From an uncultured Clostridia bacterium (GTDB taxonomy: Bacteria > Bacillota > Clostridia > Christensenellales > Aristaeellaceae), in contig CAMENN010000003.1 in NCBI GenBank assembly GCA_945928315.1, positions 1 through 58,710 on the forward strand: a DNA stretch of 58,710 nucleotides. The letters run 5' to 3'. Below, piece after piece: positions 260 to 18,613 of the stretch. The translations under genes were made by a program, and so were the position numbers. Under the pieces are notes generated by a model. The model searched no databases. It saw nothing but the letters and a program-made list of their open reading frames with translations, and was not told the DNA's origin. Positions within the stretch are counted from its first letter, which is position 1, and every line of letters begins with the position of its first letter.

Positions 260-667
260 ATGCTTCAGAATCATCCTGCTCCTGAGAGCCGCGCGCTGCC
301 CCACCACATCACCGACGAGCGCAACGGTCTGAGCTACACCCTTCACGGCGACTATTACTTCCCGGACCTGGAGCTTCCGGAGCAGCAGCCTATCGGCAAA
401 TGGGGCCGGCTGCACCTCCGGCATCTGGAATCGAACCATCCGGGTCATTTCCAAAGGCTGATGCTCACGGGAGCGCTCAATGCCTATCTACACACTATAG
501 ATGAGCAGGCTAGCGAGCGCTTCGATGTGCTCATGAAGGGATATGCCCAAAGCTGGGGCATCACCGAAGGCTTAAAGGCTGAAGATCCCATGAAGTGGGT
601 TGGGCTCATGAATCTGGCCCGAGCCGAAGCGGAGCACAACGTGATGACCGAAATCATCTGCGTCTGA
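260..667 (+). CDS. TnpV-like transposon-encoded protein
   Basis: GDYYFPDLELPEQQPIGKWGRLHLRHLE...LNAYLHTIDEQA pattern, homologous by eye to the second TnpV at 48252-48602; SD aggaggtg before ATG. Confidence 0.75.
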   Translation: MLQNHPAPESRALPHHITDERNGLSYTLHGDYYFPDLELPEQQPIGKWGRLHLRHLESNHPGHFQRLMLTGALNAYLHTIDEQASERFDVLMKGYAQSWGITEGLKAEDPMKWVGLMNLARAEAEHNVMTEIICV

Positions 668-740
668 ATCAACTTTCTTCCCCGGCCCGCACTCGATCGG
701 GCCGGGGAGGGCTGTCACGAACCGCACGAGGAGGAATCCC

Positions 741-1808
741 ATGTCCAGAGAAAAGCAGACGCCCGCGCCCATCCGTTCCAGCGCGGCGGAGGTGCTGACC
801 TATGTCGCCTCCACGGGCGACCCGCAGGGCAGCATCGAAATACGCTATGAGGACGAAAACATCTGGCTGACACAAAAGACGATGGCGCAGCTGTATGATG
901 TGAGTGTCAAAACGATCAATTATCACATCAAGAAAGTCTTTGACGATTCCGAGCTGTCCGAGGATTCAGTTATCCGAAAATTTCGGATAACTGCCACAGA
1001 CGGCAAGCCGTACACCGTCCAGCACTATTCCCTGCAAATGATCATCGCGGTCGGCTTCAAGGTCAATTCCGAGCGCGCCGTTCAGTTCCGCAAATGGGTC
1101 AATCAGATCGCAACGCAGTACACCATTCGTGGCTGGGTCATGGACGACGAACGGCTCAAGCAGGGCACCTATCTGACCGACAAGTACTTTGAGGAACAGC
1201 TGGAGCGCATCCGGGAGATCCGCGCCAGCGAGCGTAAGTTCTATCAGAAGATCACCGACCTGTACGCTACCGCTATTGACTACGACCGCACCTCCACCGC
1301 GACCAAACGCTTCTATGCCACGGTGCAGAACAAGATGCACTTCGCCGTACACGGGCACACCGCCGCCGAGCTGATCATGGAGCGCGCCGACCACACGAAG
1401 GATCACATGGGCCTGACCACCTGGCAGGACGCACCGGACGGCAAGATCAAAAAGTCCGATGTGTCCATCGCCAAGAACTACCTCACCGAGGAGGAGCTTG
1501 GGCAGCTGAACCGCATGGTCACCTCCTATCTGGACTTCGCCGAGAACATGGCCCAGCGCCACATCCCGCTGACCATGCAGGACTGGGAGACCCGCCTGAA
1601 CCGCTTCATTGAAATGTTCGAGTACGGTCTGCTCAGGGATGCGGGCAGGGTGTCCGCGGAAATCGCTCGCCTGCACGCGGAAACCGAGTTTGAAAAGTAC
1701 CGCGTCATTCAGGACCGCGAGTTCCTGTCCGACTACGACAGGTTCCTCCTTGAGCTTGAGGAACATGCGGGCGCGGCAAAGCCCGACCACCGGGAGGAAA
1801 ACCCATGA
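741..1808 (+). CDS. RhuM family (virulence RhuM-like) protein
   Basis: IEIRYEDENIWLTQKTMAQLYDVSVKTINYHIKKVFDDSEL...QHYSLQMIIAVGFKVNSERAVQFRKW is typical of RhuM; ATGA overlap with the recombinase. Confidence 0.85.
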   Translation: MSREKQTPAPIRSSAAEVLTYVASTGDPQGSIEIRYEDENIWLTQKTMAQLYDVSVKTINYHIKKVFDDSELSEDSVIRKFRITATDGKPYTVQHYSLQMIIAVGFKVNSERAVQFRKWVNQIATQYTIRGWVMDDERLKQGTYLTDKYFEEQLERIREIRASERKFYQKITDLYATAIDYDRTSTATKRFYATVQNKMHFAVHGHTAAELIMERADHTKDHMGLTTWQDAPDGKIKKSDVSIAKNYLTEEELGQLNRMVTSYLDFAENMAQRHIPLTMQDWETRLNRFIEMFEYGLLRDAGRVSAEIARLHAETEFEKYRVIQDREFLSDYDRFLLELEEHAGAAKPDHREENP

Positions 1809-3763
1809 AGCGAATGAAATGCTACATCTATACCCGTGTTTCCACCTCCATGCAGGTGGACGGCTACAGCCTGGACGCGCAGAAGGACAAGCTGCGCAAG
1901 TACGCGGAGTTCCAGAACATGCTCGTCGCCGGGGAATACTGCGACGAGGGCAAATCCGGCAAGAATATCGAGGGCCGCCCGGAGTTTCTGCGGATGCTGC
2001 GGGACATCGAATCCGGCAAGGACGGCGTCTCCTTTGTGCTGGTGTTCAAGCTCTCGCGCTTCGGCAGAAACGCCGCCGACGTGCTGACCTCCCTGCAGCG
2101 GATGCAGGATTACGGCGTCAACCTCATCTGCGTGGAGGACGGTATTGATTCCTCCAAGGACAGCGGCAAGCTGATGATTTCCGTCCTCTCCGCCGTCGCC
2201 GAGATCGAGCGCGAGAACATCCTCGTGCAGACGATGGAGGGCCGCAGGCAGAAGGCCCGCGAGGGCAAGTGGAACGGCGGCTTTGCCCCCTACGGCTACA
2301 AGCTCGTGGACGGACAGCTGCAGATTGCCGAGGAAGAAGCCGAGGTCATCCGCATCATCTATGACAAGTACATTCATACCACCATGGGCACCGCCAGAAT
2401 TGCAAACTGGCTCAACGAGCATGGATACAGCAAAATCTGCCGTCACAACAACAAGCGGGAGGCCTTCACAGGCTCCTTCCTCATCGGCGTGCTCGACAAT
2501 CCCGTGTACTGCGGCAAGCTGGCCTACGGGCGCAGGCACAACGAAAAGATTCCCGGGACCCGCAACCAGTACCACATCGTCAAGCAGAAGGACTATGCGC
2601 TCTACGACGGCATCCACGAGCCCATCATCTCCGAGGAGGACTGGCAACTCGCGCAGAAGCAGCGCCAGCAGACCAACAAGCGCCAGATCAAGACGCACAG
2701 CCTCGACCACGAGCACGTCCTGTCCGGGCTGCTCAAGTGCCCCGTCTGCGGCGGCGGTATGTACGGCAACGTGAACCGCAAGAAGAAGGGCGACGGTACC
2801 TATTACCGCGACTACTTCTATTACGCCTGCAAGCACCGCCTGCATGTGGACGGCAAGCGCTGCGACTATCACCACCAGTGGGGCGAGGAAATCATCGACG
2901 GCGCGGTGGAGGAAATCATCCACAAGCTGGTCAACACCCCCGCCTTTGAGCAGGGCATCCGGGAGAAGATCGGCGGGAAGCTGGACACCGCCGAGCTTGA
3001 CGCGGAGATGGAGACCCTGCGCAAGCAGCTCCGCCAGCTCACGGGCACCAAGGACAGGCTGGGCGAGCAGATCGACGCGCTCGATTTCGACGACCCGCAT
3101 TACACCCGCAAGGCGCAGGATCTGCAGGAGCGCCAAAACAGGGTCTACGACCAGATCGCCTCCATCGAGGTCAGCATCGCCGAGGTGCAGACCCGCATGG
3201 ACAACATCCGCCAGCACAGGATTTCCACCGACAACGTCTATCAGTTCCTGCTCTACTTCGACAAGCTGTACGACCAGTTCACCGACCTAGAGAAAAAGAC
3301 CTTCATGAACAGCTTCATCGAGCGCGTGGAGATTTACCCGGAGCGTCAGAGCGACGGGCGCATCGTGAAGCGCATCGAGTTCCGTTTTCCCGTGTATTTC
3401 AATGGTTCGGAGATCAGCGGACTTTGTTGGGACGAAACGGATATGTCGGAAACGGTGATGCTTCTGTCTAAACTCTCTGACGCCCGACATATCGACATTC
3501 ACGTCGATATGAACGAGCTGGATGTGACGCCCGCCGAAAGCCAGACGGCTGCGACCTATGACGACATCAAAGCGTATGTCAGGGAACACAGCGGTCTGAC
3601 GGTTTCGACGCTGTACATCGCGCAGGTGAAGCGGAAATACGGCATTCTCTCACGCGAATGCTACAACAAGGCAAAATCCGAGGAGGCGAAGCAGCCGCAA
3701 TGCCCGGCGGACAAGGAACGGGCGATTGCGGAAGCACTGAGGTTCTATGGCATGATCGCTTGA
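1805..3763 (+). CDS. large serine recombinase (site-specific integrase)
   Basis: N-terminal YIYTRVSTSMQVDGYSLDAQ catalytic motif, SRFGRNAADVL, Recombinase and zinc-ribbon domains (CPVCGGGMYGN), coiled coil. Confidence 0.93.
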   Translation: MKRMKCYIYTRVSTSMQVDGYSLDAQKDKLRKYAEFQNMLVAGEYCDEGKSGKNIEGRPEFLRMLRDIESGKDGVSFVLVFKLSRFGRNAADVLTSLQRMQDYGVNLICVEDGIDSSKDSGKLMISVLSAVAEIERENILVQTMEGRRQKAREGKWNGGFAPYGYKLVDGQLQIAEEEAEVIRIIYDKYIHTTMGTARIANWLNEHGYSKICRHNNKREAFTGSFLIGVLDNPVYCGKLAYGRRHNEKIPGTRNQYHIVKQKDYALYDGIHEPIISEEDWQLAQKQRQQTNKRQIKTHSLDHEHVLSGLLKCPVCGGGMYGNVNRKKKGDGTYYRDYFYYACKHRLHVDGKRCDYHHQWGEEIIDGAVEEIIHKLVNTPAFEQGIREKIGGKLDTAELDAEMETLRKQLRQLTGTKDRLGEQIDALDFDDPHYTRKAQDLQERQNRVYDQIASIEVSIAEVQTRMDNIRQHRISTDNVYQFLLYFDKLYDQFTDLEKKTFMNSFIERVEIYPERQSDGRIVKRIEFRFPVYFNGSEISGLCWDETDMSETVMLLSKLSDARHIDIHVDMNELDVTPAESQTAATYDDIKAYVREHSGLTVSTLYIAQVKRKYGILSRECYNKAKSEEAKQPQCPADKERAIAEALRFYGMIA

Positions 3764-3884: not shown

Positions 3885-6035
3885 TCAGCGCAGCAGCTCC
3901 GCAGCCAGCGTATCGGCTTCCTCCGCCGTGATCTGGCGGTTGCCGGCGATGACCTCCGAATCCGCAGGCAGGAAGGGCGCGTAGACCGCGGCAGCAAAAC
4001 CGTCCGTATACGCGCTGTCGGTGTAATGCTCCGTCTCAAAGGCGTCGCGTTCGCTGTTGTGCAGCGTCAGACCGCAGATGCCGCCGACAAAGACGACGGA
4101 ATCATCCTCGGTCATGCGGACATTGGCTTCGACATCGCTGAGCGGCGCCACCCCCCTGGGCAGCAGGATGTGCCCCCGATTCAGGCAGGATACCACCACC
4201 GTGCCGAAGGCGGAGCCCACAATGCCGCCCACGGCGCTTCCGCCCATGGCGATCATGGTCTTTTCGGTGGCGTTCAGCACGCGGCCGTCGCCGGGCTCCC
4301 GGGGGACGTAATCCACCACGTTGATCGTCGCGTCCCCGTAGCTCAGATCGCCGCTGTTCACGCAGGAGCGAATCGTGCAGGCAGCCTTCCCTTCAAATCC
4401 AATTACATACCCTGCGGTGCATCCGCCGAGGATGCCGCCCAGCCGCCCGGACTGATTGCTGTGGATAGCGCCGGTGTTTTCGCACTGGGTGATCTCGATG
4501 AAGAAGTCTTTGCCACTGTGCATCAGTCGGCTCATGATGCCGCCGGCCGTGCCGGCATTCACCGTGACGCTGCCGCTGTTGCGGCATTTCCGGATGGTCA
4601 GGGAGCCGGAATCCCCCTCCCCATAAGAGAGCGTAGGATCGACGCCCCAGCCGAGAATGCCCCCGGCAGTGCCGGATTCTTCGGACGTTGCGGTCACGCT
4701 GCCCCGGTTTTCGCAGTCTTCAATGACAGAAGCGCCCATGGTGGTGTTGACTGAACCGACAATGCCGGCGACCCGGTCGCTGGCCGTCACGCTGCCGGCG
4801 TTGACGCACTGCTGCAGATGATAATTGCCATATTCCGAAAACACCTCACCTGTAATGCCGCCGACATTCTCCCGTCCAAGAACTTGACCGTTGTTGGTGC
4901 ACCCCTGAATGATGATCGTGCCTGCGGGACGAAAGACGGAGGACCCGTTTCCGGCGATGCCGCCTACCGCCTCCGATTCCACGGCGGTCACGCTGCCGTT
5001 GTTGGTGCAGCCGATGATCTCTCCGTTTGCCGGAATACTGATCCACTTGCCGTTTTCATCCTTCAGGGTTTTGCCGTTTTCATCCTTCGCATTGGTGGGG
5101 CCTGCGCTGACCTGGCCGCAGACGCCGCCGACCGATTGGGATTGCCCGTACACGGTGATGCTGCCGTTGTTGACGCTGTCCCGGAGCGCAGCTTGGTATA
5201 CATCGCCCACAACGCCGCCGCACCCCGAAAGAACGGGAGGATTCCGGACTTCGATGGATGCGTCGTTGACCAGCCGCTCACCCGTACAGGACAGCGTGCC
5301 GCAGACGCCGCCCACATTTCCGGAGTGATTCTCCGCCGCGATGCTGCCCGAGAAGGAGCAGTCCGCAAAGACATCGCCCCATACCCGACCGGCTACGCCG
5401 CCGCTGTCATACACATGATCCACGACGAGCCGGCCGGACACGTGGCAATTTTCAATCACGGAATCCGAGCTTGATCCCACAAGTAGACCGGCTTCCTGCT
5501 TTTCAGCGGCAATCAGCATGGAATCGGTAAGGTTGACGTTGCGGATCTGCGCACGGTCGGCCTTACCGAACAGGCCGCCGGCGGTCTTCTCCTTCTCATG
5601 CAGGAGCGCTGAAAGGCTGTACAGGCCGGAGATCGTGTGCCCCCGACCGTCGAACACCCCTTCAAAATCCCAATAGCCTCTATCATGCTTTCTGGTGCCG
5701 ATGGGTTCCCAGACATACACAGGCGGCTCGCTTTCCCAGTTGGCAAAATTGGCGGTGTCGTTCAGTTCGATGTCCGCCGTCAGGACATAGTACCCATACC
5801 GGTACAGATCCTGCTCATCCTGATGATCCCAGTCATATTCCTGATTGATCACCTTCGCCAGCAGGGCCAGCTGCTGGGCATTGGCAATCTGAAACGGATC
5901 CTCCGCCGTGCCGGAACCGCTCGCAAAGGCCTCCGCAGGCTCGATGCACATCGGCATGTTCTCCGCCGCACAAGCGCCTGCCCACAGGGGCAGCAACGCC
6001 GCGCACAGCAGCAGCGCCATGAGCATTTTCTTCAT
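3885..6035 (-). CDS. secreted GLUG-motif repeat protein
   Basis: Signal peptide MKKMLMALLLCAALLPLWAGACAAE; repeated GGI(A/C)G..../CxNxGSVT units typical of GLUG proteins; start chosen at 6035 over the ORF-track 6107. Confidence 0.75.
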   Translation of the reverse strand: MKKMLMALLLCAALLPLWAGACAAENMPMCIEPAEAFASGSGTAEDPFQIANAQQLALLAKVINQEYDWDHQDEQDLYRYGYYVLTADIELNDTANFANWESEPPVYVWEPIGTRKHDRGYWDFEGVFDGRGHTISGLYSLSALLHEKEKTAGGLFGKADRAQIRNVNLTDSMLIAAEKQEAGLLVGSSSDSVIENCHVSGRLVVDHVYDSGGVAGRVWGDVFADCSFSGSIAAENHSGNVGGVCGTLSCTGERLVNDASIEVRNPPVLSGCGGVVGDVYQAALRDSVNNGSITVYGQSQSVGGVCGQVSAGPTNAKDENGKTLKDENGKWISIPANGEIIGCTNNGSVTAVESEAVGGIAGNGSSVFRPAGTIIIQGCTNNGQVLGRENVGGITGEVFSEYGNYHLQQCVNAGSVTASDRVAGIVGSVNTTMGASVIEDCENRGSVTATSEESGTAGGILGWGVDPTLSYGEGDSGSLTIRKCRNSGSVTVNAGTAGGIMSRLMHSGKDFFIEITQCENTGAIHSNQSGRLGGILGGCTAGYVIGFEGKAACTIRSCVNSGDLSYGDATINVVDYVPREPGDGRVLNATEKTMIAMGGSAVGGIVGSAFGTVVVSCLNRGHILLPRGVAPLSDVEANVRMTEDDSVVFVGGICGLTLHNSERDAFETEHYTDSAYTDGFAAAVYAPFLPADSEVIAGNRQITAEEADTLAAELLR

Positions 6036-6066: not shown

Positions 6067-7422
6067 TCATACAACCGTGAAGGCCTGTTCGTCGCTGCCG
6101 AGGACAAAGCTGTCGCCCGCCTTCAGCGGATAGCCGGTGCCGGGGCGAAGCCTTGCACCATTGAGGTATGTGCCTGCGTGGCTGCCCATATCCGCCAGGT
6201 ACAGCTGGCCCTGACGGACGAGCAGCTTGCAGTGCCTGCCGCTGATGCCGGGCGTGCTGACGGGATAGCTCAGCAGGCAGTCGGCGTCGCTGCCGATGAG
6301 GATTTCCGGCTTCGTCAGCGCAAAGGCGACGCCCGCATGTACCCCGGCCACGCACTGAACGCGCAGGGCGTTTGGGGCCCCCTGCCCGGCGGTAGCCACG
6401 CAGGCGCTGAGCTGCCCGAAGGATTTGCGCACTCCATAGCGGCAGCTGAGCCAAAGCAGCGCGGTGGCGGCGGGCAGCTTGAGCAGCAGGCCGCCGAAGG
6501 GCGCGTTCCAGAGGGCATGAACCAGAACGGAAAGCAAAAAGACCGCCCAGAAATCCATGTGACGCAGCGCAGCAAAGGGGTTGCCGCCTTTTATATGCAG
6601 GGCGGCGATGCAGCTGTACGGGGCGCAGTAGAGCACATGGCAGCACACCGCGCAGACGCCCCGCAGCACGATGGAAACCAGCACCGGAAGCAGGGTTTCC
6701 AGCACAAGGATCATGCTGACGCCATGAAGAAGAAGCTCATCATAGGAGATGTTCATCTGCAGGATGGCGTTCAGATAGGCGTCGTAGGCATACTGGGCGC
6801 TTTCAAAGGCGGCGAAGCCCGCGCCCACCGCCGCGCCGATGACCAGACCGTTCAGCCCGAACACCCTGCCCTTTTTTTGATGCAGGCGGCAGAGAAAGAA
6901 CATGGCGATGAGCAGCTTGCCCGGCTCCTCCGCCACGGGTGCCCATGAGGCCTCGTAGCCGGGAATCAGCGGGAAGAGCAGCAGGCTGACCATCAGCGAA
7001 AGCACGCCGCCGGTGAAGAAATACACGATGAGCTCGGCCAGGGAGATGTTCCGCGGCGCATTCATCTCCCAGAAGAGGATCATCAGCGTCACCGGCACCA
7101 CGCAGGGCGGCAGGAGGAACATGAGCAGGTTCAGGCAGGGATTGACGCACGCGCCCTGCACCGCGATGACCACCAGCGTAGCCGCGAGCAGCACGGCAGA
7201 CGCGGACAATCCGCCGCAGAACACCCGGAAAAACAGCCAGGGCCGCTGCCACTTCTGCAGCATGCTCATCTCGGTCTGGGCGGAATCGAGCGTTGTCCCG
7301 GCAATCATGGCGTAATCCGCGTCCTTCCGGGTGTGCTTTTCCCTCCAGCCAGAAAACACATCCCTCCACGTGAGCGACTCCGGACTGCGAATCAGCCTTT
7401 CAACCAGCGAGGGAGCGCTCAT
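6067..7422 (-). CDS. PrsW-family intramembrane protease fused to a C-terminal FHA domain
   Basis: Multi-TM protein with PrsW-like EEPGK (EExxK), FAAFE (FxxxE) and conserved His in VHALWN; C-terminus IGSDADCLL...GISGRHCKLLV...DMGSHAGTYLNGARL...GDSFVLG is a canonical FHA. TGATG overlap with the upstream vWA gene. Confidence 0.85.
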   Translation of the reverse strand: MSAPSLVERLIRSPESLTWRDVFSGWREKHTRKDADYAMIAGTTLDSAQTEMSMLQKWQRPWLFFRVFCGGLSASAVLLAATLVVIAVQGACVNPCLNLLMFLLPPCVVPVTLMILFWEMNAPRNISLAELIVYFFTGGVLSLMVSLLLFPLIPGYEASWAPVAEEPGKLLIAMFFLCRLHQKKGRVFGLNGLVIGAAVGAGFAAFESAQYAYDAYLNAILQMNISYDELLLHGVSMILVLETLLPVLVSIVLRGVCAVCCHVLYCAPYSCIAALHIKGGNPFAALRHMDFWAVFLLSVLVHALWNAPFGGLLLKLPAATALLWLSCRYGVRKSFGQLSACVATAGQGAPNALRVQCVAGVHAGVAFALTKPEILIGSDADCLLSYPVSTPGISGRHCKLLVRQGQLYLADMGSHAGTYLNGARLRPGTGYPLKAGDSFVLGSDEQAFTVV

Positions 7423-8142: not shown

Positions 8143-8799
8143 TTACTTCTTCTTTCTGCCGCGGATCAGGGAAATGACCACGGACGCGCCCCACAGCATC
8201 AGGGAACTCATGATGTCCTGTCCCATAGCGTCGATGAGGGCGCTGTTCTGCTGGATCAGATGCGCGGCCTCCGACACGCGCACGCCCCACAGGTTGGCGC
8301 AGTAGAAGGAGTAACCGAAGGCCGTTCCCAGCATGATCATCAGCAGGGAGATGGGAATCGCGATCCAGACTGCCTTTTTCGAGGACGCAGCGCCCGCGCC
8401 CGAGAGCTTCTGATAGCCGTAGACCGCCAGGAAATAGGTGATGATGCCCGAAATGGCGGCGACAATGCCGATGTTGATCAGGATCGCCTGAACGACCGCG
8501 CCGCCCAGACCAAAGAGACATGCGCCAAGGAAGCCCTTGCCCACGTTCTCCGCAGCCAGGCCGGCGGCGGGCGCAGGCTGTGCCGGGGGCGTGCTGCTGC
8601 GCGCAGGCTGCGGGGCGGGCTGCGGGGCAGTCTGTACAGGCGGCGTGCTACTGCGCACGGGCTGTGCAGCGGGTCGCGCAGGCGGCGGAACGGGCCTTGC
8701 GGAGCCTGCCGGTGCATTGCCTCCGAGGGGCGTGCCGCAATAGGAACAGGTGGTGATCAGGTCCGAATAGGCCCTTCCGCATTGACTGCATTTTTTCAT
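8143..8799 (-). CDS. zinc-ribbon, Pro/Ala-rich linker, multi-TM protein
   Basis: N-terminal CSQCGRAYSDLITTCSYC, low-complexity linker, three or more hydrophobic segments. Confidence 0.7.
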   Translation of the reverse strand: MKKCSQCGRAYSDLITTCSYCGTPLGGNAPAGSARPVPPPARPAAQPVRSSTPPVQTAPQPAPQPARSSTPPAQPAPAAGLAAENVGKGFLGACLFGLGGAVVQAILINIGIVAAISGIITYFLAVYGYQKLSGAGAASSKKAVWIAIPISLLMIMLGTAFGYSFYCANLWGVRVSEAAHLIQQNSALIDAMGQDIMSSLMLWGASVVISLIRGRKKK

Positions 8800-8832: not shown

Positions 8833-9198
8833 TCATTCGTTTCCTTTGGCGCTCTGTGCCGCGTCGCTCATGCCGGGCTGTTCCGTCGGTTCCAGCGTGG
8901 TTGTCGGCGTGGGCGTGGTTGTGGTTGTCGGTGTGGGTTCCGGCGTGGGAGTGGGTGTCGGCGTTGGGCTGCGACGGAGGGCTTCCAGCTCGCGTTCGGC
9001 GCTTTCCACTCTGCCCTGTGCGTCCCGGGCTGTCTGCTCCAGCGCGGCGCAGCTCTCCTCCAGCTCGTCGTACGCGCCGGACAGCGTGCTGTATTGCTGG
9101 GTAAGGTCATCAAATGCAGCCCGCTGCCGCATGGAAGTGAGCTGGTTGACCAGCAGCACGCCAAGCAGCAGCACGATCACCAGGGCCAGAACCGCCAT
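8833..9198 (-). CDS. small protein with N-terminal TM helix, coiled coil and Thr/Pro-rich tail
   Basis: MAVLALVIVLLLGVLLVNQL TM; heptad-like segment; PTPTPTPEPTPTTTT tail; overlaps the PP2C gene end by 22 bp. Confidence 0.6.
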   Translation of the reverse strand: MAVLALVIVLLLGVLLVNQLTSMRQRAAFDDLTQQYSTLSGAYDELEESCAALEQTARDAQGRVESAERELEALRRSPTPTPTPTPEPTPTTTTTPTPTTTLEPTEQPGMSDAAQSAKGNE

Positions 9199-10322
9199 GG
9201 CGATTCTTTGGCGGATGATTTCTTTTTTCGCCCCTTCATCCTCGGGGCTTCCGGAAAAAAAGGGGCGTCCTCCACGGCTGTGTCGGGTTCTTCCACGGGC
9301 GTCGCCGCCTGCTCGGGCAGCTCCGGCTGAGCAGTCTTCTGCACAAACTTGTGATTCAGCGCCCGCCGCCTGGCGTTCATGCTCTCCTGCACGATGGTGG
9401 TAAAGAGCTCCATGCTGAAATCCGGCTGCTTGGCGTTGGCCATCCCCTCCGGGGACGCTACCGCCACCAGCGTCAGGTCGTCGGTAACCCGCTGCGTGTA
9501 TTCCTCCGACTGCAGAAAGGTCAAATACTGCTCCATGGCCGTCTCGGCTGCGCCGTCACTGTCTTGTGCCAGCTGCTTCATGGCGTCCTCCATGAAGGCG
9601 TAGCAGATGCCGTTGAAGTAGTTGATACCGAAGTAATCGGGGTGGCTCTGCACGAAGGCGTCCAGCACGCCATCGGTCGCCATGACGAAACCGGCAACCT
9701 CCGGCACCAGCCCGAAGCTCCATGCCTTCTCGCCGCATTGCAGCGGGTAGACGCTGCTCGCTTCCTCGCCCTTCATCCGGCGGGTCGCCATTTCCACGGT
9801 ACCGTCGGGCAGCTGGGCGACAATGCCGTCGTCCCCCGCGTGCCCATGGTAGAGGCACTTTCCGTCATAAATCGCCAGCGTCAGGGTGGATTGCAGGGCG
9901 AATACCATCTGCGGCGGCTCCGCATCGTCCGCCAGGCGCTCCACCGCATCCTGCGCGGCCCGGAAGGCGGAAACCATGATTTCCTTCATCTGCTTGCGGA
10001 ATTCTCCGCTTTCGGCGTCCAGCCGAAGGCGCTTTCCGCCCGCCAGATCGCTCAGCGCTTCCCGGGCGCTTTCCAGCGCAGCGTTCACCGCCGTATAGGC
10101 GCCCCAGTGGGAGAGCTTGCAGCTGCCCACACCGTCGGCGATGGCGGCAAGGAAAATACCCTCATCCTCCATCCAGCACAGGGCATGCGCATCCTGACAG
10201 GGTGCGGGCGGCGTGCTTTTCCTGTGCGACGCGCCCTGAAGCGTGATGCCGAAGGCCGCAACGGCGGGATTCTGCACGGCTTCACAGACTTCATTCTGTG
10301 GGAATTCCTGCAATAAATCCAT
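9177..10322 (-). CDS. PP2C-family Ser/Thr protein phosphatase
   Basis: CQDAHA, AIADGVGSCK, HAGDDGIVA, VMATDGVLDAF and DDLTLVAV motifs of PPM/PP2C. Confidence 0.87.
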   Translation of the reverse strand: MDLLQEFPQNEVCEAVQNPAVAAFGITLQGASHRKSTPPAPCQDAHALCWMEDEGIFLAAIADGVGSCKLSHWGAYTAVNAALESAREALSDLAGGKRLRLDAESGEFRKQMKEIMVSAFRAAQDAVERLADDAEPPQMVFALQSTLTLAIYDGKCLYHGHAGDDGIVAQLPDGTVEMATRRMKGEEASSVYPLQCGEKAWSFGLVPEVAGFVMATDGVLDAFVQSHPDYFGINYFNGICYAFMEDAMKQLAQDSDGAAETAMEQYLTFLQSEEYTQRVTDDLTLVAVASPEGMANAKQPDFSMELFTTIVQESMNARRRALNHKFVQKTAQPELPEQAATPVEEPDTAVEDAPFFPEAPRMKGRKKKSSAKESPWRFWPW

Positions 10323-10334
10323 AGCGACACTCCT

Positions 10335-11168
10335 TTACGATTTTGTGATGACCTTGCCTCTGAGCATAAGCAGACGGAGGGTACGGAACGGATAGCTGAG
10401 GCAGAAAAGCAGCATCGCGCTGCACGCAACACCCGCGCCAGCCTTGTCCAGCGCATCCCACCGGTTCCTTCCGCCGAGTCTTCCCAGCATGCTCAGATTG
10501 TGGGCAATATGCGTCAGGGGCATGTTCTCAAGAATCAGAAACGCACCATACAGCGCCCCGACGCTGAACCAAATGCCCAGAAACGGCCACTTGAGGACGA
10601 TGCGTTCATGGAAGGAGAACAGGCTGAGTGCGCCATCGGACGACGCACTGACCTGCGCCGCCAGCTCCGAGGGCGTTTTTTTCAGGCGCGCAAAGCTGCC
10701 AAAGAGCCCCCAAAACCCGACGAGCAGACCCGGAGCCACCGTTGCCAGCGATAATTCGATGAAATCCCCGGTGCGATTCCCGTAGTACAGCCAGTTGTTC
10801 AGCAGAAGGCAGAGGGCGATGACGAGCAAAAGCAGCATCCGGAAGATGTACATGAATTGGTTTCTTCGGAACATCCGCAAAAGCTCCGGCGACAACGCCC
10901 CCGCCGCCGGTTGCTGCGCTGCGGCGCGCTGCGGCTGGGGAGCCTGCTGCTGCACCACGGGCGGCGTCTCCTGCCGGGGCGGCGGCGTCTCCTGCCGGGG
11001 CGGCGTCTCCTGCGCTTGCTGATGCGGCGGAATCCATGTTTCCGGCTCCACGTCAATCTCAATCGGCCCCATGACGTTCTCCGGGGCCTGCTCCAGATTC
11101 AGCCCGCATGCGGGACATACGCGTACATCCTCCGAAAAAGTTCTTCCGCAATAAATACACGTTTTCAT
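10335..11168 (-). CDS. zinc-ribbon, Pro/Gln-rich linker, multi-TM protein
   Basis: N-terminal CIYCGRTFSEDVRVCPAC; QETPPRQETPPPRQETPP repeats; TM segments; start at 11168 after SD aaggagat. Confidence 0.7.
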   Translation of the reverse strand: MKTCIYCGRTFSEDVRVCPACGLNLEQAPENVMGPIEIDVEPETWIPPHQQAQETPPRQETPPPRQETPPVVQQQAPQPQRAAAQQPAAGALSPELLRMFRRNQFMYIFRMLLLLVIALCLLLNNWLYYGNRTGDFIELSLATVAPGLLVGFWGLFGSFARLKKTPSELAAQVSASSDGALSLFSFHERIVLKWPFLGIWFSVGALYGAFLILENMPLTHIAHNLSMLGRLGGRNRWDALDKAGAGVACSAMLLFCLSYPFRTLRLLMLRGKVITKS

Positions 11169-11200: not shown

Positions 11201-12592
11201 TCAGATGCGATCTGCGATCAGGATGATACCGAGCAAAACAATGCCCCAGAAAAGAAGCGGTGCGAGGCAGCTTTTGTAGCAACCGGTTATCTCACTGGCT
11301 AAGCTGCCGTTATTCTGCTGCTGAGCGGGAGCCGCCGGCGGCGTGGGAGACGCGGCAGATGGTTTCGGTTGCGCGGGGGGATTGGCCGCAGCAGGCTTGG
11401 GCGGGCTGGCGGGCTTTGAAGAGGCTGCGGCAGACTTTGCCGCGGCTGCCTTTGCGGTTTGCGCCTTGCGGAACGAGGCGAGCCGCGCATCCGCTGCGCA
11501 CAGCCCGCATTTGCCCATATGACGCAGGTAGAAATGCCTTGCGCTGTTGCGGCAGCGGTAGGCCTGGCCCGGGGTATAGAACTGGTTCATGAACTGCTGC
11601 AGGTCCGTCACCCATTGGGCGGCGGTGGTGCGCTCCCTTGCGCGCTCCTGAATGTTCGATGCGTCGTAATTGAAGGTGCGGTAAAAATCCTTGACCAGCT
11701 GCTGCGACACCATCTCGTTCAGATAGGGCGCGCCGATGGGCACCGTCAGATCCGTATAATTATGAATAAAGGGGCATTTGCCGTTCACAAGGTGATCCAG
11801 CCGCTGGTTGGTGGAGGTGGAATCCTTGATGACCACCAGATTTTTCCCAGTGAAGGGATGGAAGTTGTTCATCAGCAGCTGGAAGATGTGGATGGCGAGG
11901 GCGAAATTGTCGCTGTGCTTGGAGAACACCGCGCCGGGCGAACGAAGGTTGCGCCCCTGCAGCTCCGGCGCCAGATAGTCCTGCGTGCCGGCGCAGCAGC
12001 GGAAATGCATGCCCGAGGCGGTATCCAGCAGATCAAAGCTGTCGTTGTCCAGCATGGTGATGAGGCCGCCGGGCGATACCATGATGTTCTTGCAGTTCAG
12101 GTCGCCCACGATGCAGTTGCGGGCATGCAGATACGCCACGGCCTTGGCCAGATTGAGCGCCACCTGCAGGTTGAACATCCAGTTGTAGTCGGGGAACATG
12201 GCCTGCGCCTTGGGCATATCGCAGCCGCGGGCGATCGTGCAGATTTCCACGCCGTTCTGTATAAAGGGCATGGTGTAGCCGATAAAGGCGCCCTTTTCAT
12301 CGCAGAGAATATCCTGCGGCCAGGCCAGGGCGAGAATCACCTTGCCCCTGCTGTCGCGAAGGTCCTCGATGGGATGCTGCACCATGTAGCGGATTTTGCC
12401 TTCGACCTCGGGTTCCACCTTCTTGTAGATTTTCCCCACCAGTTTCTCCCCGGTAATCCGGTATACGCGGCCCTCGCCGCCGGCGCCAACCTCTTTCCCC
12501 AGGGTGTAGCGCCGCCCGTTCAGGCCGCAAACCGTGCTGCCTTCCTGCACAGCCATGCCGCCACCTCCTGAGCTTTCGATAATACGCTTCAT
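11201..12592 (-). CDS. Ser/Thr protein kinase-like protein (YegI/TerY-P triad type) with C-terminal Cys-rich and Pro/Ala-rich region
   Basis: VGAGGEGRVYRI Gly loop, LVGKIYKK, catalytic loop VGDLNCKN, LDNDSFDL (DFG-like), DYLAPEL (APE); C-terminal HFYLRHMGKCGLC. Confidence 0.87.
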   Translation of the reverse strand: MKRIIESSGGGGMAVQEGSTVCGLNGRRYTLGKEVGAGGEGRVYRITGEKLVGKIYKKVEPEVEGKIRYMVQHPIEDLRDSRGKVILALAWPQDILCDEKGAFIGYTMPFIQNGVEICTIARGCDMPKAQAMFPDYNWMFNLQVALNLAKAVAYLHARNCIVGDLNCKNIMVSPGGLITMLDNDSFDLLDTASGMHFRCCAGTQDYLAPELQGRNLRSPGAVFSKHSDNFALAIHIFQLLMNNFHPFTGKNLVVIKDSTSTNQRLDHLVNGKCPFIHNYTDLTVPIGAPYLNEMVSQQLVKDFYRTFNYDASNIQERARERTTAAQWVTDLQQFMNQFYTPGQAYRCRNSARHFYLRHMGKCGLCAADARLASFRKAQTAKAAAAKSAAASSKPASPPKPAAANPPAQPKPSAASPTPPAAPAQQQNNGSLASEITGCYKSCLAPLLFWGIVLLGIILIADRI

Positions 12593-12726
12593 TGTAACAA
12601 ACCGCTCTGCCGGCAGCAAGGAAATTTCCGGCGAATTGCTGCACAAAAAGTGCAAATTTTCCGGGCGGTCATCCGCATGCCGCACCCTCTGCACAAAAAG
12701 GACAAAATCGCGCACAAAACCGGAAA
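12593..12726. promoter_or_regulatory. divergent intergenic control region between kinase operon and STAND NTPase gene
   Basis: 12-bp direct repeat CTGCACAAAAAG at 12639-12650 and 12689-12700; GGAAATTTCC palindrome at 12620-12629; TTTTCCGG (12657-12664) inverted at 12720-12727 (CCGGAAAA). Confidence 0.45.
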
Positions 12727-15717
12727 ATGGACGGCCTGCGCTTGAAAAAGGACGGCGCAATAGAGTATCCTTATAAGGTCAAAGATTTGAGAAAGGTGCT
12801 GACTCAGGTGGAGAGAATCACGCTTTCCCTCAAAAGCATATACCGGCTACTGATGAACGATGATTTCCCGGTGTACTCGGATCGGGTCATCGGCAAAAAG
12901 CAGCGAAAGGGGCAGACGCTGCTGCGCTTTTGGAAGGATATCATGGCGCACGAGTTCTGCTCCCTGCCCTACGGCAAGATGATCTGGCGGGACGACGGCA
13001 TGCGCAGCCGTTCCTTTTCCAATCTGTGCAACCGCAACGACGAGCTGAAGATTTACCACGAGTACGCCAGAGAGCTGGGCTCGTGCATTTCTGCCGATAC
13101 GCTGCTCCATCAGATTGATCTGTTTGAGCGCTTCCTCACGGCGCGGGAGTATTCCGACGCGGCGCTGCGCTACCGCACCGGGGCGTTCCTGCGCGTGCTT
13201 CATGACGATGAGTGCGTCACCGGGGCGATCGGCGGGCATCTCGCGGGCATCTTCGAGGCGCTCAGCAGCAATACGGACGCCGAACCGGAGCTTGCCGCGT
13301 TCCGCGCGGCGTATCTGCTGACGGTGATGACGCTGTATGCGGCGGCGGGGACAGCCATGGGCGATTCCTGCATGGCTGTGCTCCGGGACGATGCGCTCGG
13401 CATGGACGCCCTGTGGGCGCTGCGCACGCAGAAGCAAACGCAGGGCAACCGCGAGGTCCGGATTCTGACGGCCTACTCCGCGCTCTTGCAGGACACCTCC
13501 CTGTCCCGGAACCGCTTTTTCGGGCGGGAGGCGGAGCTGTTCGACCTGCAGGACCTCGCGGCGTCCGGGCAAAAGTGCCTGATCTCCGGCATCGGCGGCA
13601 TTGGCAAAACGGAGCTGCTGCGCCAGCTGGTTCGCCGCTGTCTCGAGGAGCGCCTGGTGGACAAGCTGGCGATCATTCCCTACCGTACGAGTCTGGCGGA
13701 GAGCATGGTCTATGCGTTCCCGGATCTGATGATGCTCAAGCAGGACGAGGCGCTGCACAGCGCGCTCTACCGGCTGCGGCGCGAGGCGCAGGACGGGACG
13801 CTGCTGCTGCTCATCGACAACGTGACCAACGACGCGGATGCCGACGCCGGCTTGCTTTCCCTTGCCGAGCTGCCCTGCACGGTGATGGCGACCTCCCGGC
13901 TGTCGGCGCTTTCGGGCTTTGAGCCGTATCCGCTGGGCGCGCCCGCCCCGGACGCCTGCGCACTGATCTTCCGGGACAACTACGGCAGTCCCCTCTCTGT
14001 CGCGGAGCGCGGCGAGCTTTCACAGCTTTTGTCCCGCCCGGACTTCTGCCATCCGCTGACCCTGCGGCTGATGGCCCGCGCGGCGGGGAGCAAGGACTGG
14101 ACGGTGGGCGCGCTGCGCGAGAGCCTTTTGCACGATGCGGCGCTGACCTATGTGGAGGACGGGCAGCAGGTCAGGATTGAGCAGGTGCTCGCCCGGCTGT
14201 ATCCCGCCAACCGGATTCCCAAGGGCTGCGAGACGGTGATCCAGCTGTTCACCCTGCTGCCCCGTGACAGCTATCCGGCGGACACGCTGCTCACGGATTT
14301 CCCGCAGCTGTTCCCGGATCGCGACGAGCTTGCCCGGAACCTGGCCCTGCTGGTGCGTCAGGGCTGGCTGGAGCAGGATGAAAGCGGTTGCTCCATGCAT
14401 CCGCTCATCGCCCAGTGCCTGCGCCGCAAGACCCTGCCGGAGTCCTGGCTGGCGCCCTTCCTTTCCAATCTGCGCCCGCGGCTGTCCGGTGCAGACCGGG
14501 AGTTCTCTGCCGAATGCCGGCGTGCCGTTGCCATCATCCCGTACAGCCTGCAGTTCCTGACCGGCCCCATCAGCGGCGCGCTGCTGATGGATCTGATGGA
14601 TGCGATGGATATGCAAGTTCCTTTCCAGTCGCAGAGGGAGCAACACTGTCAGTGGCTGAAGCAGCTGCTGCGCCGCTGCCCGGACCGGGACGATACCGTG
14701 GACGTCTCATGGCACGGGCTGCTGTGCATCTGGTCGATGGATGAAGAGGAAACGGTACGGGCTGTCTTTGACAAGCAGCGTCAGGCGCGTACCGTCCCGC
14801 TGGACAGGTATCTGGAATTCTGCCATGCCGCCAGCTCCCAGTTGGCCTTCAAAAATCCGGTCTTGTCGGAGCAGCTGGCCCAGGCTGTTCTGGCTGAGGC
14901 GGACGCTCCTGCCGTGAACAAAGTGCGCGCCTATCTCAGACTGGCACAATGTGCGGAGTTTGCCGGACACGCTGAAGAGGCCCTGCATCTGGCCCGAACC
15001 AGTCTCCAGTATTCGCAGGATCCCCAGGTGTGCTGTGGCAGGGAAGCCCTGGTGAGTTCGGCCTTCTGCGCTACGCTGTGCATCAAGTTCGGACAGGGCG
15101 AGGAAGCAAAGCCCCTGCTGGACAGGTTGGGGACAATCGACACGCTCTCCATGTACCCGGATCTCTATTGGGAATATTTGTTTGCCCTTGGCACGTGGGA
15201 GCTGTATTTCGGCGACATGGATAACGCCCGCAAGGCGTATGAACAGGCGCTGCAGAGTGCCGAGGAACTCACGGGAAAAAATCCCGCCTACTTTGATTGC
15301 CTCAACCAGCTTGCAATTATCGCACAGCGGCAAAATCGCTTTGACGATGCGAAAGCCGCTTATGAGGAAATCCTCGACGAACGCTCCGGGCATGTGTACG
15401 GCAACGTCGCCCGGAACAATTACGCCGTGCTGCTGCTGGACATGGGGCAGCCGGAGGAGGCCCTGCACGTCATCGCGCAGGTGCTGGCCATCGCGCGGGA
15501 GCATGGCGGCATCGCCCTGGGCGAAGCCCTTCGGAATAAGGCCCGCGCCCACGGCATGTTGGGCGACAATGCCCAGGAGCGCGAATGCCTCACGGAAGCG
15601 CTGCCGCTGCTGGAGCAAGCCTACGGCCCGGAGCATCCCAGACCCACGGCGGCGAGGGAGCGGCTTGCGCAGCTGCGGGAGCAGGAAGCGCAGGCGGAGC
15701 AACCGCTTTCACCATGA
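12727..15717 (+). CDS. STAND/NB-ARC-like NTPase with TPR-like C-terminus and uncharacterised N-terminal domain
   Basis: FFGREAEL, Walker A GIGGIGKTELL, Walker B LLLLIDNV, sensor VMATSR, HPLTLRLM (GxP-like), winged-helix-like region, then helical repeats (AFAGHAEEALHLARTSL, FGDMDNARKAYEQAL, NRFDDAKAAYEEIL). Exact start uncertain (no clear SD at 12727). Confidence 0.85.
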   Translation: MDGLRLKKDGAIEYPYKVKDLRKVLTQVERITLSLKSIYRLLMNDDFPVYSDRVIGKKQRKGQTLLRFWKDIMAHEFCSLPYGKMIWRDDGMRSRSFSNLCNRNDELKIYHEYARELGSCISADTLLHQIDLFERFLTAREYSDAALRYRTGAFLRVLHDDECVTGAIGGHLAGIFEALSSNTDAEPELAAFRAAYLLTVMTLYAAAGTAMGDSCMAVLRDDALGMDALWALRTQKQTQGNREVRILTAYSALLQDTSLSRNRFFGREAELFDLQDLAASGQKCLISGIGGIGKTELLRQLVRRCLEERLVDKLAIIPYRTSLAESMVYAFPDLMMLKQDEALHSALYRLRREAQDGTLLLLIDNVTNDADADAGLLSLAELPCTVMATSRLSALSGFEPYPLGAPAPDACALIFRDNYGSPLSVAERGELSQLLSRPDFCHPLTLRLMARAAGSKDWTVGALRESLLHDAALTYVEDGQQVRIEQVLARLYPANRIPKGCETVIQLFTLLPRDSYPADTLLTDFPQLFPDRDELARNLALLVRQGWLEQDESGCSMHPLIAQCLRRKTLPESWLAPFLSNLRPRLSGADREFSAECRRAVAIIPYSLQFLTGPISGALLMDLMDAMDMQVPFQSQREQHCQWLKQLLRRCPDRDDTVDVSWHGLLCIWSMDEEETVRAVFDKQRQARTVPLDRYLEFCHAASSQLAFKNPVLSEQLAQAVLAEADAPAVNKVRAYLRLAQCAEFAGHAEEALHLARTSLQYSQDPQVCCGREALVSSAFCATLCIKFGQGEEAKPLLDRLGTIDTLSMYPDLYWEYLFALGTWELYFGDMDNARKAYEQALQSAEELTGKNPAYFDCLNQLAIIAQRQNRFDDAKAAYEEILDERSGHVYGNVARNNYAVLLLDMGQPEEALHVIAQVLAIAREHGGIALGEALRNKARAHGMLGDNAQERECLTEALPLLEQAYGPEHPRPTAARERLAQLREQEAQAEQPLSP

Positions 15718-18224: not shown

Positions 18225-18462
18225 TGATCAGGCTGTTTGATGCCGGTAAGGTTTTCGGCGAGTATGAGGATGCGGGCAAGCTGATGATCTCCGTCCTCTT
18301 CGCGGTAGCGCAGATTGAACGTGAGAACATCCACGTGCGGAGGGCCGCATCCAGAAGGCCCCCGAGGGCAGATGGAACGGCGGCTTCGCGCCCTACGGCT
18401 ATGGCCTCGTCAACGGGCGGCTGGTCGTCAACGAGGAAGATGCCAAAGCCGTCCGTCTGTCC
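18225..18462 (+). pseudogene. serine-recombinase remnant (frameshifted, truncated)
   Basis: Frame 1 DAGKLMISVLFAVAQIERENIHV, then in another frame EGRIQKAPEGRWNGGFAPYGYGLVNGRLVVNEEDAKAVRL; collinear with residues ~119-180 of the intact recombinase at 1805-3763. Confidence 0.75.
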
Positions 18463-18512
18463 GTTCTGTTTCCTGATCCTTTGGCCAGCGTCCGATCTCA
18501 GCCTCCCACCCC

Positions 18513-18549
18513 GGAATATCCTGCACAACCGACCGGAAATTTCGATACT
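18513..18549 (+). promoter_or_regulatory. tandem candidate operator upstream of the response-regulator gene
   Basis: GGAATATCCTGCACA at 18513 and GGAAATTTCGATACT at 18535 (22-bp spacing); the first is 14/15 identical to the sites at 34827/34849. Confidence 0.5.
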
Positions 18550-18613
18550 GTGCTGGATTCTCCGTTTGAATATGATATACTGAGTATATCATAGGGGAAA
18601 GGGGCTGACGGCC

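What the first reader, a model, noticed from the sequence alone, without database searches (positions are those of the whole stretch)
6067..7422. PrsW intramembrane protease fused to an FHA phosphothreonine reader
One ORF joins a multi-TM domain with PrsW-like EExxK, FxxxE and His motifs to a canonical C-terminal FHA domain, translationally coupled (TGATG) to the TerY-like vWA gene. It suggests phosphorylation-controlled recruitment or activation of a membrane protease, as an anti-sigma protease or a toxic effector.
Basis: partly seen in the sequence, partly recalled or inferred. Interest (0 to 1): 0.7.

Follow-up and report, generated by a model that had tools for sequence, protein, structure and literature searches.

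The report
PrsW membrane protease with atypical FHA
A gut-type Clostridia genome carries a rare but already described kind of protein, a membrane-embedded protease fused to a phosphoprotein-binding domain; here it sits in a kinase/phosphatase operon, and its binding domain has lost the arginine normally needed to grip phosphate.

Summary
The ORF is real: 451 aa, ATG at 7422, sharing one base with the stop of the upstream vWA gene. Pfam PrsW and FHA both score above cut-off, and AlphaFold2 gives eight membrane helices plus an FHA sandwich (pLDDT 90). All PrsW motifs (E165-E166-x-x-K169, F203-xxx-E207, H262, H302) are intact and near-invariant in 30 relatives. The FHA is not canonical: the phosphate-gripping Arg is Ser378 (Arg in 13/14 aligned FHA domains and all four other PrsW-FHA fusions), and the pocket's second Arg and its Asn are also gone. 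The four other full-length fusions I found group with this one in a PrsW tree, and all lie in kinase-PP2C-FHA loci, so a phosphosignalling role is well supported for the subfamily. In the window the partner genes form a TerY-P-like triad (kinase with zinc ribbon, PP2C, vWA) with zinc-ribbon membrane proteins and a GLUG protein, next to mobile-element genes. PrsW-FHA fusions were reported and read as signalling peptidases in 2012. Most likely this is the membrane-protease arm of a kinase operon, docked by its FHA in a way that is probably weak or phospho-independent. Nothing supports the anti-sigma or toxin readings.

The parts
6067..7422 (-). PrsW-FHA fusion protein, 451 aa
6385..7236 (-). eight-helix PrsW membrane domain (aa 63-346)
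   Evidence: AlphaFold2 model; Pfam PF13367
6916..6930 (-). EExxK motif (E165, E166, K169)
   Evidence: E165 in 29/30, E166 and K169 in 30/30 PrsW relatives
6802..6816 (-). FxxxE motif (F203, E207)
   Evidence: 30/30
6637..6639 (-). H262, third PrsW motif
   Evidence: 30/30
6517..6519 (-). H302 (HALWN), fourth PrsW motif
   Evidence: 30/30
6073..6363 (-). C-terminal FHA domain (aa 354-450)
   Evidence: Pfam PF00498; Foldseek to solved FHA domains
6289..6291 (-). Ser378 (AGC) at the position of the phosphate-binding Arg
   Evidence: Arg in 13/14 aligned FHA domains and 60/67 in a broader set; codon
7422..8087 (-). TerY-like vWA protein, 221 aa, DxSxS motif present; its stop overlaps the start of the PrsW-FHA gene
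   Evidence: homologues beside PP2C and kinase genes
8143..8799 (-). zinc-ribbon membrane protein, 218 aa
   Evidence: zinc-ribbon matches are sub-cut-off
8833..9198 (-). short protein with one N-terminal hydrophobic segment and a coiled-coil-like stretch, 121 aa; possible substrate
   Evidence: read from sequence
9177..10322 (-). PP2C phosphatase, 381 aa
   Evidence: Pfam PP2C_2 1.3e-22
10335..11168 (-). zinc-ribbon membrane protein, 277 aa
   Evidence: zinc-ribbon matches are sub-cut-off
11201..12595 (-). Ser/Thr kinase with C-terminal zinc ribbon and terminal hydrophobic helix (start at 12592 or 12556)
   Evidence: Pfam Pkinase 2e-10; C-x5-H-x-[YF]...C-x2-C pattern shared with triad kinases
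3885..6035 (-). GLUG-repeat protein with signal-like N-terminus, 716 aa, last gene of the run
   Evidence: matches the GLUG ectodomain of a triad kinase (L198)

Best explanation
The protein is a PrsW-family (glutamic-type) intramembrane protease with a cytosolic C-terminal FHA domain. It belongs to a PrsW-FHA subfamily that works inside bacterial kinase/phosphatase pathways. In this operon a membrane-anchored TerY-P-type kinase and a PP2C set the phosphorylation state of the vWA, zinc-ribbon and other membrane proteins. The FHA domain tethers the protease to that assembly, and the protease cuts a membrane protein, most plausibly one encoded in the operon such as the 121-aa protein or a zinc-ribbon protein. 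Shown by sequence and model: domain make-up, intact catalytic motifs, operon layout, subfamily context. Inferred: tethering, substrate, and the order of events. In this copy the loss of Arg, Arg and Asn makes classical phosphothreonine binding unlikely, so the tether is probably weak or phospho-independent.
For: Both Pfam domains are above cut-off. The AlphaFold2 model is confident, with eight membrane helices, and its sandwich matches solved FHA domains. Catalytic residues are invariant or nearly so in 30 relatives. Four of four other PrsW-FHA fusions lie beside Ser/Thr kinase and PP2C genes, against 0 of 61 FHA-less relatives (Fisher p 1.5e-6, not corrected for relatedness). The five fusions form one side of a branch (91/92), and the window groups with L125 and L126 at 96/97. 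The eight genes run in one direction with gaps of -22 to +55 bases. Homologous vWA, PP2C and kinase genes occur together elsewhere. The kinase of one such triad carries a GLUG ectodomain that matches the last gene of this operon.
Against: No substrate is identified. The window's TerY-P-like context differs from the kinase-FHA loci of the other four fusions. None of the triad loci examined in relatives contains a PrsW-FHA. The operon is found in one genome only: the kinase scored in 3 of 151 family genomes (this one included) and the fusion in none of 28 other genus members. The PrsW model has no significant match to a solved structure.
Confidence: 0.6

Rival explanations
1. The FHA still works as a classical phosphothreonine reader: phosphorylation of the kinase or a zinc-ribbon protein recruits or activates the protease.
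For: FHA fold, Ser394 and His397 are kept; four relatives keep the Arg; kinase and phosphatase in the same operon.
Against: Ser378, Gly395 and Ala416 replace three pocket residues; mutating the equivalent Arg severely disrupts or abolishes binding in two tested FHA domains (PMC4238996, PMC4892509).
Confidence: 0.2
2. The FHA has decayed and is only a structural remnant; the protease acts without phospho-control, perhaps in a cluster recently carried in on a mobile element.
For: Several pocket residues lost at once; gene absent from 28 other genus genomes; TnpV, RhuM and a large serine recombinase lie on its 3' side in the window.
Against: The FHA fold is predicted at very high confidence with no stops or indels, and Ser394 and His397 are kept, which suggests continued constraint.
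Confidence: 0.25
3. It is a site-1 protease for an anti-sigma factor, as PrsW is for RsiW in Bacillus subtilis.
For: Catalytic domain of the same family; B. subtilis PrsW does site-1 cleavage of RsiW; in one relative a triad-type kinase lies near an ECF-like sigma gene (L116).
Against: No sigma or anti-sigma gene seen in the window cluster or beside the L125 and L183 fusions; the genome has a separate PrsW scoring 121 bits against 57.
Confidence: 0.1
4. It is a toxic effector or a toxin-releasing peptidase of a polymorphic toxin or defence system.
For: PrsW domains are fused to toxin domains in other bacteria (PMC3482391); TerY-P modules are linked to defence systems (PMC11090510).
Against: C-terminus is FHA, not a toxin domain; signalling-type PrsW fusions are said to form distinct sequence groups from toxin-linked ones; no PADLOC model matches the protein, the vWA or the PP2C.
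Confidence: 0.05

Closest known systems
PrsW fused to FHA, PilZ, cyclic-nucleotide-binding or Zn-ribbon domains (Zhang et al. 2012, PMC3482391)
   Same: Same architecture type, and already interpreted as a signalling peptidase controlled by the attached sensor domain.
   Different: The passage read gives no gene context or pocket residues; here the FHA lacks the key Arg and the operon is TerY-P-like.
PrsW-FHA proteins in Lachnospiraceae X68 (L125), Monoglobus MAG (L126), Clostridiales RUG14431 (L131), Bacillota NALB_7821a_28 (L183)
   Same: Same two domains in the same order, same catalytic motifs, beside kinase and PP2C genes, same branch of the PrsW tree.
   Different: All four keep the FHA Arg; their loci do not have the window's operon and most carry several FHA proteins; L131 and L183 have an N-terminal zinc ribbon.
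TerY-P triad (vWA, PP2C, kinase with zinc ribbon; described in PMC11090510)
   Same: All three gene types present with the zinc-ribbon pattern after the kinase domain.
   Different: Different gene order, extra zinc-ribbon membrane proteins, PrsW-FHA and GLUG genes, and no restriction or tellurite genes seen nearby.
Trypsin/HtrA-TM-FHA proteins of Clostridia kinase loci (e.g. L125:23-1489)
   Same: A protease plus membrane anchor plus an FHA domain closely similar to this one.
   Different: Serine protease outside the membrane instead of an intramembrane protease.

Membership tests
PrsW family intramembrane protease | family profile above curated cut-off | tested here: met
   PF13367 53.9 bits vs 23.5
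PrsW family intramembrane protease | four motifs EExxK, FxxxE, His, His | tested here: met
   intact; invariant or nearly so in 30 relatives
PrsW family intramembrane protease | about eight membrane helices | tested here: met
   AlphaFold2 model
PrsW family intramembrane protease | fold matches a solved structure | tested here: inconclusive
   no sequence relative in PDB; Foldseek E>0.4, with APH-1 and another multipass chain the highest probability (0.44-0.47)
PrsW family intramembrane protease | proteolytic activity | not testable with these tools
   needs an assay
FHA domain | fold and profile | tested here: met
   PF00498 52.4 bits vs 20.7; target TM up to 0.90
FHA domain, phosphothreonine-binding type | five conserved residues Gly, Arg, Ser, His, Asn | tested here: not met
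   Gly377, Ser394, His397 kept; Arg is Ser378 and Asn is Ala416 (list of five from PMC4238996)
FHA domain, phosphothreonine-binding type | binds pThr | not testable with these tools
   needs binding assay
TerY-P triad | vWA, PP2C and kinase in one operon | tested here: met
TerY-P triad | zinc ribbon C-terminal to kinase | tested here: met
   C-x5-H-x-[YF]...C-x2-C shared with L198, L203, L116 kinases, read by eye
Toxin-linked PrsW | C-terminal toxin domain | tested here: not met
   C-terminus is FHA
Anti-sigma site-1 protease | cognate sigma/anti-sigma pair | tested here: inconclusive
   none seen in the cluster or beside the L125 and L183 fusions; whole genome not searched

The most novel reading that the evidence does not exclude
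A TerY-P-type kinase module whose output is intramembrane proteolysis: an Arg-less FHA has evolved a different, phospho-independent contact with the vWA or zinc-ribbon partners and gates the PrsW protease, making a kinase-controlled route of regulated intramembrane proteolysis outside the sigma/anti-sigma scheme.
Probability: 0.15. Interest if true: 0.65.

Novelty: new variant of a known kind. Interest (0 to 1): 0.4.

Why it matters
Links between Ser/Thr phosphosignalling and intramembrane proteolysis in bacteria are little tested. This subfamily gives a concrete, testable set of loci (five fusions, all with a kinase and a phosphatase beside them). The window copy, with an intact protease but a broken phosphate pocket, is a natural test of whether FHA phospho-binding is needed for the protease's role.

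Tried and rejected
First genome-contig scan with the single sequence found nothing; a three-row alignment was needed. Association with type VII secretion was considered because a tandem-FHA protein occurs in one locus; the flanks read did not show ESX components. A phage or plasmid origin of the fusion was not supported: only PrsW-only matches in Listeria records and one partial PrsW match in viral contigs. Toxin reading rejected on domain content. Most FHA matches from the family and order searches proved to be other FHA proteins, many with a trypsin-like protease, not PrsW-FHA orthologues. The Fisher test overstates significance: at 40% identity the FHA-less set collapses to one cluster.

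Full report
Observation. The minus-strand ORF at 6067-7422 encodes 451 aa. Pfam finds PrsW-protease at 160-310 (E=2.3e-14) and FHA at 375-442 (E=7.5e-14), both above the curated cut-offs. The start codon shares its A with the stop of the vWA gene. AlphaFold2 on a 39-row alignment gives pLDDT 90.4 and pTM 0.87: a short N-terminal segment, eight long membrane helices (63-346), and a beta-sandwich (354-450). Foldseek matches the sandwich to solved FHA domains with target-normalised TM up to 0.90. A separate model of the PrsW part (pLDDT 86.8) has no significant PDB match; APH-1 and another multipass chain have the highest probability (0.44-0.47) but E>1. Zhang et al. 2012 note distant kinship of PrsW to APH-1, so this agrees with expectation but does not prove the fold.

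Catalytic residues. Across 30 PrsW proteins, E166, K169, F203, E207, Y211, H262 and H302 are invariant and E165 is found in 29. The protease should be active (inference; no assay).

The FHA pocket. Five residues are described as most conserved in FHA domains: Gly, Arg, Ser, His, Asn (PMC4238996). Mutating the Arg or Ser severely disrupts binding in MupFHA, and mutating the Arg abolishes it in Fkh1 (PMC4892509). In the window protein Gly377, Ser394 and His397 are kept, but the Arg is Ser378 and the Asn is Ala416. The residue after Ser394, Arg in the other four fusions, is Gly395. The Arg is kept in 60 of 67 FHA domains from related loci and in all four other fusions. The Asn varies freely in this group, so its loss alone means little; the Arg loss is the unusual feature. 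The Ser378 codon is AGC. The claim of a 'canonical' phosphothreonine reader is therefore not met for this copy.

Relatives. A scan of one genome for each of 85,462 species with an alignment gave 65 PrsW relatives. Four have a C-terminal FHA: L125 (Lachnospiraceae X68), L126 (Monoglobus MAG), L131 (Clostridiales RUG14431) and L183 (Bacillota NALB_7821a_28), confirmed by Pfam. All four lie beside Ser/Thr kinase and PP2C genes; none of the 61 FHA-less relatives does. Fisher's exact p is 1.5e-6, but the FHA-less set is mostly closely related Bacilli and collapses to one cluster at 40% identity, so this is suggestive, not a clean test. In a maximum-likelihood tree the five fusions are one side of a branch (91/92) and the window groups with L125 and L126 (96/97), so a single origin of the fusion is plausible. 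In L125 the gene directly upstream encodes a trypsin-TM-FHA protein. About eighteen FHA proteins in the related loci carry both a His-containing TNxHV-like motif and a GxSGGP serine-protease motif. These loci were picked for FHA similarity, so this is not a rate, but it shows that tying a membrane-anchored protease to an FHA domain is a recurring theme in Clostridia kinase loci.

The window operon. Eight genes run in one direction with gaps of -22 to +55 bases: kinase with C-terminal zinc ribbon and hydrophobic tail, zinc-ribbon membrane protein, PP2C, 121-aa single-helix protein, zinc-ribbon membrane protein, vWA, PrsW-FHA, GLUG protein. Kinase, PP2C and vWA match the TerY-P triad definition (PMC11090510). 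Homologous triads exist in L198 and L203, without PrsW-FHA. The L198 kinase carries a membrane helix and a GLUG ectodomain that matches the window's last gene (BLAST E=7e-7). This links the GLUG protein to the kinase and suggests an outside-sensing role (inference). The cluster is rare: the kinase scored in 3 of 151 family genomes, this one included, and the fusion in none of 28 other genus members. TnpV, a RhuM-family gene and a large serine recombinase lie at one end of the cluster, so horizontal acquisition is likely.

Mechanism and rivals. The best reading is a PrsW protease serving as the membrane-proteolysis arm of a kinase/phosphatase operon, with the FHA as tether. For the subfamily, phospho-dependent docking is credible. 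For this copy it is probably weak or replaced by phospho-independent contact. A decayed FHA is the main rival. Anti-sigma cleavage lacks a partner gene, and the genome has another PrsW. A toxin role lacks a toxin domain.

Novelty. PrsW fused to FHA was reported in 2012 and read as a signalling peptidase (PMC3482391). A library search found no paper that mentions both PrsW and TerY. The new elements are the TerY-P-like setting, the Arg-less FHA, and the measured context of the subfamily.

Noticed in passing
12727-15717 (+): Divergent 996-aa NTPase (NACHT/AAA-like, sub-cut-off) with C-terminal TPR repeats, starting beside the kinase gene; may belong to the same mobile cluster.
   Followed up: partly
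260-3763 (+) and 18284-18583 (+): TnpV, RhuM-family protein and large serine recombinase at one end of the operon, and a recombinase-like fragment on the other side: the kinase cluster is probably mobile cargo.
   Followed up: partly
L198:5003-6886: TerY-P-type kinase with membrane helix and GLUG-repeat ectodomain, i.e. a receptor kinase version of the triad.
   Followed up: partly
L125:23-1489 and many related loci: Trypsin/HtrA-TM-FHA proteins are common in Clostridia kinase-PP2C-FHA-vWA loci; function unknown.
   Followed up: partly
L116:11742-12949: ECF-like sigma factor and a following possible anti-sigma gene, by sequence reading, just downstream of a TerY-P-type kinase and zinc-ribbon gene.
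   Followed up: no
L203:13210-13778: Two small (92 and 97 aa) proteins downstream of a TerY-P-like triad, WXG100-like in size; the first has no Pfam match.
   Followed up: no
G000:C57:8683-9234: Second, more typical PrsW gene in the same genome (121 bits).
   Followed up: no
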